DNA of 64,000 bases from Phanerochaete sordida. Lineage: Eukaryota > Basidiomycota > Agaricomycetes > Polyporales > Phanerochaetaceae. Location: contig BPQB01000040.1 of assembly GCA_019973155.2 (NCBI GenBank), positions 1 through 64,000 on the forward strand. The letters are read 5' to 3'. Position numbers and translations under genes: made by a program. The notes under the pieces are model-generated. The model had not been told where the DNA came from, made no database searches, and saw nothing but the letters and a program-made list of their open reading frames with translations. Of this stretch, positions 5,521 through 12,400 are shown piece after piece; position 1 is the first letter of the stretch; each line of letters opens with the position of its first letter.

Positions 5521-7133
5521 ATGGACGCTGCAGCGAACCCCGCCGCCCGCCTCTGGGACAAGGCGGCTGCGCGCGTGCGGGCTCTCACGCAGGACAGGAG
5601 GGACTACCTCGTCGGCATCTCGCTGCTGCTCGTGGTCGTGTTTCTCTGGACGACTGGGAGCTTCATCACGCAGGTGCGTGCGCCCGGTGCTGGTGCTCTG
5701 GCCGGATGCTGAAGCTATGGTGTGCTCCTTAGGACTTGTACGAGGATGGGTATAACAAGCCCTTCTGGTGTGTTACCAGGCCACAAGCTCGCTCCCTGAA
5801 CCGCTGCTGAACGTCATGCCAGGTTAACGTACCTCAGCACTGCCACATTCACACTATACCTACTCCCATACGGGATCAGAAGGGCCCTCGGGGGCGCAAA
5901 GACGAGCGACGGAGGTAGGTGCGTACGCCCGCTCCGCGCCGCAGGCCCTCTCTAACCAAGCTGCAGGGCGCACGAAGGCTACCAGCCCCTCACAACAGAA
6001 AGCGCACCCGAGGCTTTGACTCAGCCAGTGAGTTCCGCCCGCAGAGCGACGAAAGCGCGGTGCTGACGGCGAGCAGGCACCCGAACCCCCGGCGCACGAG
6101 GTGCTGCCGCCGCTCACCATCCGCGAGACGGCACAGCTCGCCGGGTGGTTCTGCCTCCTCTGGTTTGTCGCGAACTGGACGCTGGCCGCGGCGCTGCAGT
6201 ACACGAGCGTCGCGAGCGCGACGATCCTGTCGAGCATGAGCGGTGCGTGATCAGGGCGTCCTCAATATATTCTGTACTGAATTGCGCCAGGCTTCTTCAC
6301 GCTCGCCGTTGGCCGCATATTCCGCGTCGAGAGCCTAACGCTGGTCAAGATTGGTGCAGTCGCCACGAGGTCAGGGCCGTGCTGTATTACCCCGCACGCC
6401 AGAGACTAAGATTAGCTTTCCCCGCAGCTTCGGCGGTGTCGTCCTTGTCTCGCTGGCAGATCGTTCCTCGGACGCGGAAGCACCGCCAGGCAGCGGATAC
6501 TCGGCCGCCGCGTTCGTCGGCGACTGTCTCGCGCTGCTCTCGGCACTCTTCTACGCGCTCTACGTGACCCTCTTCAAAGTCCGGGTCCGTGAGGAGTCGC
6601 GCGTGGACATGCAGCTTTTCTTCGGCTTCGTCGGCCTCTTCAACGTCCTGTTCGTGTGGCCTATCGGCGTCATTCTGCACTTCACCCATGTCGAGCGCAT
6701 CGAGCTGCCGACCTCGAGCCGGGTCGTGGTATTTATTCTGATTAGCGTGAGTTTTCGCACTTTCGGGCCCGTGGATATGAGAATGCTGACGGGAGCTCAA
6801 TTTTATGTGCAGATGGGAATCACACTGTCAAGCGACTACTTGTACATGCTCGCCATGCTCAAGACCACACCGCTGGTCGTGACGATTGGACTTTCCCTCA
6901 CGATGCCTGTTGCGGTCATCGGCGACTTTATCCTGCACAAGCCGGTGAAGTGGAAAGTTATTCTCGGTGCCGTGGTGGTCTTGCTGAGTTTTGTGGCCGT
7001 CGGGCTGGAGGATTCCCGGAACAGCGGTGAGAAAGACTTGATCTCCGGCAAGACTCTGGATGAGGAACGAGCCGTTGCCGGGGACGAGTCCGAGGAGGAG
7101 GTAAATCTGGAATCCCATGTGGTGTCGTCGTAG
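5521..7133 (+). CDS. SLC35F-like multipass membrane transporter
   Basis: This is a drug/metabolite-transporter superfamily (EamA/SLC35F) protein, similar in layout to fungal vacuolar or Golgi membrane proteins of the SLC35F3/4/5 group. The substrate cannot be told from sequence. Seven exons (5521-5673, 5733-5767, 5823-5914, 6045-6242, 6291-6369, 6428-6746, 6813-7133) give 398 aa, all in phase. Hydrophobic helices include YLVGISLLLVVVFLWTTGSF near residue 30, LAGWFCLLWFVANWTLA, FVGDCLALLSALFYALYVTLF, and a C-terminal pair ending in VILGAVVVLLSFVAVGLE. The tail is acidic and hydrophilic. One long intron (5915-6044) has an acceptor inferred from phase. It reads in the same direction as TSR1 and the HAC1-like gene. 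Confidence 0.82.
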
Positions 7134-7589: not shown

Positions 7590-8662
7590 ATGAAACGCTC
7601 AGCCGAGTCCGCCTTCGTCGTCGAACAACTCCCCGGCTCTCCCGGACCCTCGTCGTACTCCCCTTCGGAAGCGTCGACGCCCTTGCCGTCCTCGGAATGC
7701 CCTCCTCGCAAACGCTCCCGCTCCGAAGTCACTCCGGAGGAGCGCAAGGAGGCCCGTGCACACCGCAACCGCATCGCCGCGCAGAACAGCCGCGACCGGC
7801 GGAAAGCGCAGTTCTCCCACCTTGAGCGGCGCGTCGCCGAGCTCGAGGAGGAGAACAGGCACCTGCGCGCGGGCATGGGCCTCGCTCCCCAGTCACCATC
7901 CGCGGAGCAGCTTTCGCAGGAGCGCCAGAAGGAGCTCGCCCGGGAGAAGGAGAACCAGGAGCTCAGAGAGAGAATCAAGACCCTCGAGAACGGCTGGGAC
8001 GCCGTCATCAAGGCCCTCGCGGCATCTGGTCTGCCCCTCGCTGTCCCCGCCCCACCACCACACCCCTCCGACTCAACAACTGCGCCGTCACGTCCCGTGT
8101 TCGCCCAGCCGACACACTCATATCCATCACCCGCCCCATCATCACCATCATCGAGTTCCGGATTCGAGTTCGACGAGTACGAGCCCACTCGCCACCTAGC
8201 ACGGGTGGCGACCACCGATGCCCCTCTTTTATCATCGGTGCCCCAGCAGCGGGTGGACTCCCAACGAATCAACTTGAGCTCGAGCTCACCCCTTCCCCCT
8301 CGACACAGGCCGCCGCCCCGACGGTGTCCCTCGACGAAGGCGCCATGGAGGATCTCTTCCGTGAGATCCTCGCACCGTCGCCTCTACTCTCGTCGGCGCC
8401 TGTGCCCATCGGCATCACCATCGAGGAGGCCCCCCAGCCTGCGCCCACCGGGGCGCCCGCTGTGAGCGCAGCCTCCGTACAGCCGATGATCGACTGGGAA
8501 GGCGAAGCGGAGATGCAGAGACTCCTGGAGATGCTCCCCGACGTCGCCGGCGACATGAACGGAGAAGCACCTAGCGACGCGATCGACTTTCCCTCCGCCC
8601 TCGACTTGGGCCTCAACGGATGGGACCTCAACCTCACGTCACCGACAGTCGCCGCGTTCTAG
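7590..8662 (+). CDS. HAC1: HAC1/XBP1-type bZIP factor with non-spliceosomal intron
   Basis: This is the probable transcription factor of the unfolded protein response. The bZIP basic region lies at residues 52-74, with signature NRIAAQNSR (N60 and R68) and the AAQ.SRDR.KA pattern seen in XBP1 and HAC1. A leucine zipper starts near L78 (LERRVAELEEENRHL). The N-terminal frame (from 7590) runs out at 8465, while the acidic C-terminal frame (EGAMEDLFREIL, EAEMQRLLEMLP) lies in another register and ends at 8662. Removing 8200-8246 (47 nt) joins them into 341 aa as ...RHLAAGGLPTNQ. The excised piece lacks GT-AG ends but sits between two IRE1-type loops (see 8191-8253). Unspliced mRNA would encode 291 aa with a different tail. 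The bZIP call is firm, and the HAC1 call rests on basic region plus RNA structure. Confidence 0.86.
8191..8253 (+). promoter_or_regulatory. IRE1-type unconventional intron (8200-8246), three hairpins
   Basis: Three hairpins lie end to end. Hairpin 1 is a perfect 6-bp stem GCCACC/GGTGGC (8191-8196 with 8204-8209) around the 7-nt loop UAGCACG. Hairpin 2 is a perfect 8-bp stem CACCGATG/CATCGGTG (8213-8220 with 8233-8240) with a 12-nt loop. Hairpin 3 is a CCC/GGG stem (8241-8243 with 8251-8253) around the 7-nt loop CAGCAGC. IRE1 cuts after the third loop base, a G, in HAC1/XBP1 messages. Cuts after 8199 and 8246 remove 47 nt, which is 2 mod 3 as needed to join the frames. Loop 3 fits the known CNG|CAGC pattern exactly. 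Loop 1 keeps the central G but starts with U. Confidence 0.82.
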
Positions 8663-9461: not shown

Positions 9462-12400
9462 CTAGAACCCGCTCGCGGTGACACGGAGCTGCTCGAGCTT
9501 CTTGAGCACCTCGCCGACGGTGCGGTCGAGCTCCGTCGCGATGTTGCTCTGCTTCGACGCGGGGAGGCGCGCGAACTGCTCGCAGAGGTCGCCGTCGACG
9601 ACCGCCTTGACGGGCACGTAGTACCCGCGCCACGCGAGGTGGTCGCGCCCGACGAGGCTCAGCTGCTCCGTGCGCATGTGCTGCTCGAGCGTCGAGATGA
9701 AGTCGACGTCCTCCTTCGAGACGAACGGCACGAGGATGCCGACCGTGCCGTGCAGGCCCGTGTACAGCAGCACCTCGCGCCCGCCCGCGACGAGCGCGAC
9801 CTTCTGGATCGACGTCACGATGTCCCCGACGTGGAAGTGCGCGAGGAGTGCCGTCTTGTGCGGCGCGCCCATCAGCACGCCCTTCTCGTGCAGGATCCCC
9901 GCGCCCGTTGGGTCGTCGTCGACTTGGTCGCTGATCTTAGCATCGAGTCGGTTGACGAAGACGTTGCCGAAGCGATCGCCCGCCGCGACGGTGTTGTAAT
10001 CGACCATCGTCACGGCAGTGGTCCAGCGTGGTTGTGCGTCGTCGGCGAATACGAGGAGACGGTTCTCTGGCGCCTTGTACACGGCGTAGTGGATGGACTC
10101 TTGCATGTCACCGACGATGATACGCGAGCCTTGTGTGTTCAGCGTCACAATTGCACCTGAGAAGCTCTGCAGGACATGGTGAGCAGATTGTACGCACTTG
10201 TGCGGAGTGCAGGCATACCTTGTTCTCGACCTTGCGCAAGAGCTTTTTCTTTCCGATATCATACAGCCTCAACGACTTGCCGACACCAGCCGCCAAGCGA
10301 CCTTGGAAGGCCATGACAGCGAGCGGAACATCGTTCGTCTCCGTCTGCGGTACTCGTCAGCAAGGTGGGCGCTTCCAGCGCGTGGTACGACTCACCTTGT
10401 GCAGTAGCTCGAGATCCCGGCCATCATTCACGAAACGGTAGGTTCGCAGGAAGCCGCTTGTACATGATCGCGGCGCAAGGAAGGTGTCTTGCGCAGTGCC
10501 GACGACAAGCGTCAGCTCACCTCCACGCGCAGCGAAAGGAACGATCGCTATTGAGAACGCAGACTCGTTGTTGTCAAGTGGAATAAAGGTGACTGTTTGA
10601 GCCTATTCGTCCGCGTTAGATGAGGTCCATGAGAAAGAGCTCGGATACTCACGTCAACTGGGCTCACGATACGAATACCTGAGGCCCATGTCCCAGCAGG
10701 TGCTTTTTGTCTGCCAAACACTTCCGGAGGAAGGTTCAGCATTTCCTCGTCAACCTCTTTTCCTTGCCGCCTCTGAGCAAGGTTTACGAATGAGCACGAC
10801 GCAAGGTTTGAGTTTGAGAGAGTAAGCTTACCAGCTCCTCAACTTTCTTCTCCTTGGCTTCCTCTCCCATGACCCTGTGGTCGCCTTCAATCAGATAGAA
10901 TAATCCGTTGGTAGGGTGCACGATCATCTTGCGGGGCGTGTATGAGAGCGGAATGGCATCCTGCTTCAGCTTGGTGCCTAGCTTGGGAATTTGGAAGATC
11001 CTACGGGACAGATGTTAGCTAAACGTTGCACGACACAATCATATCGGACGGAGCCCAGTGACATGAACGATGCACGAAGGGAAAGGTAGGCACGATATCG
11101 AATGTTACCGCTCATTGCCGTATTCTCCGTCTTCGTGAGATGCAGGGAAGCCGGCCGACTTACCTCAGAACGCTCCCTGAAATACCAATAAGACCCTCCG
11201 GACACAGCTCGGCGGAAAAACTCCATGCGTAGTCAAGGTTATCGAAGATGAGGGGTGTGAAGTGCATGAGGTTTTGGTGGGTATAATTGAGCCATGACCG
11301 GGAGGAGAGCGCGAGGATACCAGGGTTCTTCTGGACTTGAACCCGTACCAGCTTGATAGGCCGCGTTCCCAAGAACCTAAACCCTATGTCAGACGCCGTT
11401 CACTAGCGAACTCAAGTGAAACATACCTGGTTCGCGTGTCTGTCAGTTGCCCGTTAATAGGGTCAAGCACCGTTCTTAGTAGAACACCGTTTTGCAGGCC
11501 GATGTTCACGAAGGTCGTCGGCTGAACCTTGTTGATGCCGGCATCCAGCATGTCGGCGATGCAGATAGCGGACGGAGGTGCCGTCAATGCTTGCAGACTG
11601 ATGGTATCGAGTGTGCTCTCTGGATCGAGCGAAACGATGCGGACGGTCTGATCTTCACATCCGACGGCCAGGAAAGGTGTACGCTGCCTGCCCTCGGGCA
11701 CTTCGCCGACGCTCAGTGCGAGGACGGTACTGCCCATCGCCTTGCGTTCTTGGTATTCATTGAGCTGGCCCTCGAGGTCGAGCTCGAAATACACGAGCTC
11801 GGCGCTGCTGAGGGCAACGACGACTTGCCGGCGGTTGGTGGTAGCGCAAACGATAGTCTTGCCTTGCGGAACCCGCCACTCATTGACTCGACGGTCCGCC
11901 AGAACGTGTCGAATTCCATGAGGGTGGACCTGGAGGAGAGCGTCGGCACCAAGCTGCTGGACCGCAAGAGTAGGCGACGAGGAAAGGAAGCCAGTATCTT
12001 GCACTTCTTCGATAGTCTCGCCGATCGAAAGGACAAGGGTACCGTTAACGAAAGAGAGGATGATATATGAGTCGTATGGGTCTGGAAAGCGGGTTCGTGA
12101 GTTGAATTATGCACAATGCAAGCTACTGCGCACCGTCTTCTCGTATCTTTGTGGTCCATACGGCATTTGGAATACCGGGAAGATCTGAGCTAACGACCTC
12201 CTCGACGTCCAGACCATGCCTGAGCATTCGCAGTGAACTCCGACCTCCGCGACCGCAGGCGGCGAATATTTGCGGTGAGTCGGAATTCGGAAGCAGGTTG
12301 AGGACCTTCGCGTCCACGATTGGGTCAAGGCTCTCGAGCTCATCGACCAGTGTCAAGTTGTCGAGACCACGAGGACGGAAGTACGCGCGAGGGAGAGCTA

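What the first reader, a model, noticed from the sequence alone, without database searches (positions are those of the whole stretch)
8191..8253. IRE1-type unconventional intron in a HAC1/XBP1-like gene, with a 47-nt excision
Seen: two coding frames out of register; three consecutive perfect hairpins at the junction; the outer two with 7-nt loops UAGCACG and CAGCAGC. Cutting after the third base of each loop removes 47 nt (2 mod 3) and gives one 341-codon frame reading ...RHLAAGGLPTNQ. No GT-AG pair tested here gives a credible intron. Known: HAC1/XBP1 mRNAs are cut by IRE1 in 7-nt loops (CNG|CAGC) after a bZIP frame. Inference: this gene is the UPR switch of this fungus. A 47-nt intron and a U-first 5' loop differ from the well-known 20, 26, 56 and 65-nt cases.
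Basis: partly seen in the sequence, partly recalled or inferred. Interest (0 to 1): 0.9.

Follow-up and report, generated by a model that had tools for sequence, protein, structure and literature searches.

The report
Stress-switch intron in mushroom HAC1 gene
This fungus, a relative of wood-decay species, carries a gene for its protein-folding stress response whose messenger RNA very probably has 47 letters cut out by the stress sensor IRE1 instead of by the normal splicing machinery; the kind of switch is well known, but one of its two cutting sites departs from the rule worked out in yeast, and seems to do so in many mushroom relatives.

Summary
A bZIP frame (ATG 7590) and a downstream frame (stop 8662) are out of register; removing 8200-8246 (47 nt) between loops UAG|CACG and CAG|CAGC gives one 341-codon ORF. 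Corrections: the third hairpin is weak (closing-pair probability 0.10-0.28), and 485 conventional-end pairs would also keep frame. Comparison decides. Of 218 proteins listed by three searches (the window's own included), 175 read the 5' site in the unspliced frame and 15 carry the spliced junction. P0151 and P0111 are identical for 187 residues up to the junction, then fit one DNA read in two frames over 68 residues, with an implied 41 nt removed: an unspliced and a spliced form of one gene. 47 nt is the commonest implied length (50 of 127). The genome encodes an IRE1 RNase and a Trl1-type ligase domain. So this is the HAC1 gene of a Phanerochaete-like fungus. Less expected: the 5' loop lacks C1 and G6, which yeast Ire1 needs, and codon logic excludes G6 in all 175; the 3' loop fits. 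This IRE1 has the S. pombe/human-like interface, but that only partly explains the tolerance.

The parts
7590..8199 (+). Exon 1: N-terminal part and bZIP domain of the HAC1/XBP1-like protein
   Evidence: ORF; Pfam bZIP_1 2.7e-11 and bZIP_2 5.4e-9, residues 49-94; closest named relative Phanerochaete carnosa, 77% over 68% of the query
7734..7871 (+). bZIP domain (basic region and leucine zipper)
   Evidence: Pfam; best of five PF00170 hits in the whole genome, 44.9 bits
8189..8211 (+). 5' splice-site hairpin: 8-bp stem, 7-nt loop UAGCACG (8197-8203), cut after G8199 (inferred)
   Evidence: (inner pairs 0.995 or more)
8200..8246 (+). IRE1-type (non-spliceosomal) intron, 47 nt, begins CA, ends AG; the joint is ambiguous by two bases on either side because both sites share AG|CA
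   Evidence: proteins with spliced junctions
8213..8240 (+). Intron-internal hairpin (8 bp, 12-nt loop)
8241..8253 (+). 3' splice-site hairpin: weak 3-bp G-C stem, 7-nt loop CAGCAGC (8244-8250), cut after G8246 (inferred)
   Evidence: closing pair 0.10-0.28
8247..8662 (+). Exon 2: C-terminal part in the spliced frame (first codon completed by G8199), putative activation domain (inferred; no Pfam match), stop 8660-8662
   Evidence: exon-2 peptide conserved in relatives
8247..8465 (+). Alternative C-terminal tail of the unspliced protein (291 aa in all), stop 8463-8465
   Evidence: P0001

Best explanation
This is the HAC1 (XBP1-type) gene of an Agaricomycete close to Phanerochaete, and 8200-8246 is its IRE1-excised intron. 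Shown: two frames, two 7-nt loop sequences with a G|C bond at the third position, a frame-restoring 47-nt segment, conservation of the element in many relatives, proteins matching a spliced and an unspliced form of one relative's gene, and IRE1 RNase and Trl1-type ligase domains in the same genome. Inferred: without stress the mRNA is read through to a 291-aa protein; under ER stress IRE1 cuts both loops, the ligase joins the exons, and the new frame adds a C-terminal domain that makes the factor active. How this IRE1 tolerates the off-consensus 5' loop is open; its S. pombe/human-like dimer interface is a partial candidate.
For: Exact joint and 341-aa ORF. Of 218 listed proteins (window's own included), 15 carry the spliced junction and 175 read the 5' site in the unspliced frame. 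P0111/P0151: 187 of 187 identical residues, then two frames of one DNA over 68 residues (best of 200 shuffles: 8; ten other spliced proteins: at most 9), an implied 41 nt removed. Six of the 15 lie on contigs of 1.2-2.4 kb from unnamed organisms. The exon-2 peptide AAGG..TNQLxLEL, nearly all of which the three GT-AG alternatives ending at 8308 would delete, is conserved. IRE1 RNase 88.5 and 58.8 bits, with the Y1043, N1057 and H1061 equivalents kept. tRNA-ligase CPD domain 95.5 bits. The intron has no GT-AG ends.
Against: No transcript of this species was seen. No spliced form with 47 nt removed was found next to its unspliced partner (search with P0042). The 3' hairpin is weak. The 5' loop breaks two of the three yeast-defined positions, and the yeast interface mutant (K992D,Y1059R) still wanted CNG|NNGN in HAC1-derived loops (PMC8104961, passage), so the interface does not fully explain it. 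No 5'-UTR attenuator pairing: 99 of 200 shuffles pair as well. No Rfam family reached its gathering score. Many gene models of relatives show other joins. Codon-position GC does not discriminate: GC3 is 0.783 in the exon-2 spliced frame and 0.736 in the unspliced tail.
Confidence: 0.94

Rival explanations
1. An ordinary spliceosomal GT-AG intron joins the two frames, for example 8253-8308 (56 nt), 8238-8308 (71 nt) or 8205-8308 (104 nt), and the hairpins are incidental.
For: These keep the frame; the 3' site ACACAG follows CTCAC and a pyrimidine tract; several relatives' gene models contain other joins near here.
Against: Donors GTGGAC, GTGCCC and GTGGCG lack G at +5 (that fungal donors favour G there is recalled); models of relatives disagree with each other on the join; the exon-2 peptide that would be lost is conserved; 15 listed proteins join at H-x-A|A-G.
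Confidence: 0.04
2. Programmed ribosomal frameshifting, or a sequencing error, links the two frames.
For: The two frames overlap for hundreds of bases.
Against: P0111 lacks the intron-encoded residues that P0151 has; frameshifting would keep them. The unspliced frame recurs in many relatives, so it is not an error.
Confidence: 0.01
3. It is an IRE1 intron, but the 5' cut lies elsewhere in the AG|CA ambiguity window or in a different fold, so the working loop is not UAG|CACG.
For: Both sites share AG|CA, so the spliced sequence fits five cut positions; the 5' loop may close to five nt.
Against: G|C after loop base 3 is the bond in that window that matches the rule for yeast Ire1 (PMC549064 and PMC8104961, passages).
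Confidence: 0.06

Closest known systems
Cryptococcus neoformans HXL1 (56-nt IRE1 intron; PMC3154848, passages)
   Same: Basidiomycete bZIP gene, IRE1-dependent intron downstream of the bZIP, frame switch, no 5'-UTR attenuator detected; the paper names homologues in Coprinopsis and Laccaria.
   Different: 56 versus 47 nt; the paper names CAG at both intron borders, here UAG at the 5' one. Its loops are in a supplementary figure that I did not see.
Saccharomyces cerevisiae HAC1 (252-nt intron; PMC549064, passages)
   Same: Two hairpins, cut after G3 of a 7-nt loop, ligation by tRNA ligase.
   Different: Both yeast loops have C1, G3 and G6; here only the 3' loop does. Yeast has a long intron pairing with the 5' UTR (PMC6116095, passages); none found here.
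Metazoan XBP1 (26-nt intron; PMC4490496, start of abstract in a search listing)
   Same: Short intron and C-terminal frame switch (PMC4891664, passages); IRE1 here has the pattern at yeast 992/1059 that human IRE1 has (PMC8104961, passages).
   Different: Length; XBP1 exons are joined by RTCB, here a Trl1-type ligase domain is encoded. XBP1 loops were not compared.
Trametes (Pycnoporus) cinnabarina P0029
   Same: Orthologue whose gene model reads the same 5' element, STRHLAR.
   Different: The genome paper (PMC4101180, passage) says no clear Hac1/XBP1 orthologue was found, although Ire1p and Trl1p were. That the two names are one species is recalled.

Membership tests
HAC1/XBP1 genes with an IRE1-excised intron | bZIP frame upstream of the intron | tested here: met
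   Pfam bZIP_1/bZIP_2
HAC1/XBP1 genes with an IRE1-excised intron | Two hairpins with 7-nt loops, scissile bond after the G at position 3 | tested here: inconclusive
   5' hairpin strong; 3' loop and G|C present but its stem is weak, 0.10-0.28
HAC1/XBP1 genes with an IRE1-excised intron | Removal switches frame and adds a new C-terminus | tested here: met
   291-aa unspliced versus 341-aa spliced protein
HAC1/XBP1 genes with an IRE1-excised intron | Spliced product exists at this junction | tested here: inconclusive
   Supported in relatives only: P0111/P0151 pair and 15 of 218 junction proteins; no RNA of this species, and the RNA origin of the relatives' contigs is inferred
HAC1/XBP1 genes with an IRE1-excised intron | Genome encodes IRE1 RNase and an RNA ligase | tested here: met
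   PF06479, PF08302, catalytic residues
HAC1/XBP1 genes with an IRE1-excised intron | Splicing depends on ER stress and IRE1 | not testable with these tools
   Needs RNA from stressed and ire1-deleted cells
S. cerevisiae-type Ire1 site consensus (CNGNNGN in both loops) | C1, G3 and G6 in the 5' loop | tested here: not met
   UAGCACG: only G3 fits. S. pombe Ire1 cuts other loops (PMC8104961, passages), so I take this as a property of the yeast enzyme, not of all IRE1 substrates
S. cerevisiae-type Ire1 site consensus (CNGNNGN in both loops) | C1, G3 and G6 in the 3' loop | tested here: met
   CAGCAGC
S. cerevisiae-type HAC1 attenuation | Intron pairs with the 5' UTR | tested here: not met
   Duplex -24.8 kcal/mol; 99 of 200 shuffled UTRs as good (150 nt upstream of the ATG taken as UTR)
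S. cerevisiae-type HAC1 attenuation | 3'-UTR bipartite element | not tested
   -
Spliceosomal intron | GT-AG (or GC-AG, AT-AC) ends | tested here: not met
   CA...AG in the IRE1 register; no shift within the ambiguity window gives such ends (read)

The most novel reading that the evidence does not exclude
Agaricomycete HAC1 mRNAs use an asymmetric pair of IRE1 sites: a 3' loop of the type CNG|CNGC and a 5' loop UNG|CNCG that lacks two of the three bases yeast Ire1 requires, kept in most of the relatives seen. It is cut because their IRE1, with a permissive dimer interface (D at yeast 992, K at 1059) and perhaps further changes, accepts it, and the two sites may differ in cleavage order or rate.
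Probability: 0.45. Interest if true: 0.55.

Novelty: new member of a known kind. Interest (0 to 1): 0.45.

Why it matters
It identifies the unfolded-protein-response switch in wood-decay and mushroom fungi, where gene models often miss it: a published white-rot genome reported no clear Hac1/XBP1 orthologue (PMC4101180, passage), and relatives' models place mutually inconsistent joins at this spot. It gives an exact 47-nt RT-PCR marker for ER stress, to be tested. The off-consensus 5' loop shared by many relatives makes a clean test of how IRE1 and its substrate evolve together.

Tried and rejected
Rfam: six matches, all below gathering score and unrelated. Relatives' DNA: P0001 as query found none in viral contigs or in the bacterial and archaeal genomes, so covariation of the stems could not be tested; metagenome scans were capped at zero. 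A 47-nt spliced/unspliced pair: not found. A 5'-UTR attenuator: no better than chance. Codon-position GC of exon 2 (0.70/0.51/0.78) first looked like support, but third positions of the unspliced tail are 0.736, so I do not count it. The solved-structure search with exon 1 gave nothing at E 0.001. The survey of HAC1/XBP1 introns by Hooks and Griffiths-Jones 2011 is not held, so whether it covers Agaricomycetes and their 5' loops is unknown.

Paper searches: judged by titles and abstract starts, the rows shown (30 of 48; 11 of 11; 25 of 150; 25 of 149; 15 of 70; 20 of 151; 20 of 309; 12 of 19) held no paper describing an IRE1 intron in an Agaricomycete; most subscription papers are not in that library, and two searches of ten were left unused.

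Limits of the counts: each protein search lists only its best 120 (of 473, 448 and 479 hits), giving 218 distinct proteins, the window's own P0001 among them; they are 90%-identity clusters of related fungi, not independent samples. Implied intron lengths come from protein frames, assume the same cut positions and are 2 mod 3 by construction. In one search, 90 of the then 188 proteins fell outside my two patterns; re-sorted all 218: 127 read through the intron, 48 read the 5' site and then leave the frame, 22 show the exon-2 frame or AAG[GED] only, 15 spliced, 6 neither. The pattern demands Arg at the 5' site; the open pattern (188 proteins) found Arg in 145 of 158 matches and Ala, the spliced joint, in the other 13; 30 had no match. 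P0110 and P0120 read RHPAAGG and P0217 CHSAAGG; whether the cut or the codon differs there cannot be told without DNA.

Full report
The observation. The window carries a bZIP frame starting at ATG 7590 (Pfam bZIP_1 2.7e-11) that stays open to a TGA at 8463, and a second frame, open from 7826 to the stop at 8660-8662, out of register with it. Cutting after the third base of the loops UAGCACG (8197-8203) and CAGCAGC (8244-8250) removes 8200-8246, 47 nt, and gives one ORF of 341 aa reading ...TRHLAAGGLPTNQ.... The stated coordinates are right.

The fold. The 5' hairpin has eight pairs, the inner ones with probability 0.995 or more; the intron-internal hairpin has eight pairs; the 3' hairpin has only three G-C pairs plus possible G-U pairs and a closing-pair probability of 0.10-0.28 in five fold windows. 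The region folds better than 199 of 200 dinucleotide shuffles. A twin-hairpin rule fitted to this case finds it alone in 64 kb, with none on the other strand and none in 60 shuffles; a looser rule finds only it, with a shuffle mean of 0.08; the strict yeast consensus at both loops finds nothing here.

Frame alone is not proof. 485 GT-AG, GC-AG or AT-AC pairs of 35-200 nt would also join the frames without a stop. Three GT-AG candidates end at a fair 3' site (8308), but their donors lack G at +5.

Relatives. Three protein searches, each listing its best 120, gave 218 distinct proteins, the window's own P0001 among them; the closest named relative is from Phanerochaete carnosa (77% over 68% of the query). 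In one search, 175 of 218 read the 5' site in the unspliced frame (167 with Leu, 8 with Ser before Ala-Arg), 15 carry the spliced junction (H-L-A-A-G type), 22 show the exon-2 frame across the intron or the AAG start only, and 6 show neither. Among the 127 that read through the whole intron, implied lengths are 29 (1), 35 (2), 38 (8), 41 (10), 44 (21), 47 (50), 50 (32) and 53 (3). So 47 nt is ordinary for this clade.

A spliced and an unspliced form of one gene. P0111 (1344-base contig) and P0151 (1381-base contig) are identical over all 187 residues up to HLA. After that P0111 reads A-G-G-L-E-L-F..., P0151 reads R-V-A-T-T-E-R-P-S-S-V-S-L-Q-R-V.... A dynamic-programming test shows that one DNA can encode both tails in two frames over 68 residues, with an implied 41 nt removed; 200 shuffles reach at most 8 and the ten other spliced proteins then tested at most 9. 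P0120 and P0142, from two Mycena species, give 78 residues, but with RHPAAGG. The joined form can come only from RNA or from a predicted gene model; that the short contigs are RNA-derived is my inference from their size.

Against GT-AG. Relatives' gene models place different joins at this spot (for example HLAR|LELN in P0014, QQR|LELEL in P0008, LLSS|LSPSP in P0003, joins inferred by eye). The peptide just after the IRE1 joint, AAGGLPTNQLELELTPSPS here, is conserved (AAGGFATNQLQLELSPSPS in Trametopsis cervina, P0004), and nearly all of it would be deleted by each of the three GT-AG candidates ending at 8308. Codon-position GC does not help: the third-position value is 0.783 in the spliced exon-2 frame and 0.736 in the unspliced tail.

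The machinery. The same genome has the IRE1 RNase domain in two exons behind a frame with kinase motifs recognised by eye. It matches solved IRE1 structures (2rio at 3.9e-36; 3fbv, the yeast enzyme according to PMC8104961, at 4.2e-36), with the equivalents of Y1043, N1057 and H1061 kept. A tRNA-ligase CPD domain of the Trl1 type is present.

The unexpected part. Yeast Ire1 needs C1, G3 and G6 of the loop (PMC549064, passages; CNG|(C/A)NGN in PMC8104961, passages). The 3' loop here fits. The 5' loop has U1 and C6. Codon logic extends this, if the loop sits at the same place: in H-L-A-R it starts at the second base of Leu, always U, and position 6 is the first base of Arg, C or A, never G. So G6 is excluded in the 175 proteins that read the 5' site, and C1 in the 167 with Leu. 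Because demanded Arg, the fair check is, which allowed any residue: after H-x-A it found Arg in 145 of 158 and Ala, the spliced joint, in 13. The 3' site reads L/Q/R, then Q/P, then R in 125 of 127, all compatible with CNGCNGC; the other two read QR-Q and LQ-Q. At yeast positions 992 and 1059 this IRE1 has D and K, the S. pombe/human-like pattern that 175 of 230 orthologues have (PMC8104961, passages). In that paper the yeast double mutant (K992D,Y1059R) accepted S. pombe BIP1-derived hairpins with only G and C required at the cut, but in HAC1-derived loops it still required CNG|NNGN, that is C1 and G6. So the interface is a partial explanation at best, and being common it is not diagnostic.

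Verdict. A HAC1/XBP1-type gene with an IRE1 intron: a new member of a known kind. Length is not notable in its clade; the asymmetric 5' site is the interesting residue. ER-stress dependence in this species remains untested.

Noticed in passing
G000:C30:403594-404035 (L006, L007): The fungus's IRE1 RNase domain has D and K at the positions of yeast K992 and Y1059 and K for R1039: the S. pombe/human-like interface, which by the argument of PMC8104961 predicts that it can also do IRE1-dependent mRNA decay.
   Followed up: partly
P0029 (Trametes cinnabarina): An orthologue with the same 5' element exists in a species whose genome paper (PMC4101180, passage) reported no clear Hac1/XBP1 orthologue.
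   Followed up: partly
window 8200-8246, third frame: The intron is also open in the exon-2 frame (TGGDHRCPSF...); some relatives' gene models read it that way and skip the TRHLA region (for example P0004, P0012, P0039).
   Followed up: partly
window 9462-10262, minus strand: Convergent neighbour with a CPSF A domain (PF03178, 2.6e-62), probably an SF3B/RSE1-type splicing factor or a relative (by recall).
   Followed up: no
window 6351-7133, plus strand: Upstream neighbour with a weak EamA-type transporter match, below the curated cut-off.
   Followed up: no
P0053, P0059, P0067, P0079, P0166, P0195, P0205, P0209: Ser replaces Leu at the 5' site, which would put C at loop position 1 if encoded by TCN, so C1 may have been regained or kept in a few lineages.
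   Followed up: no
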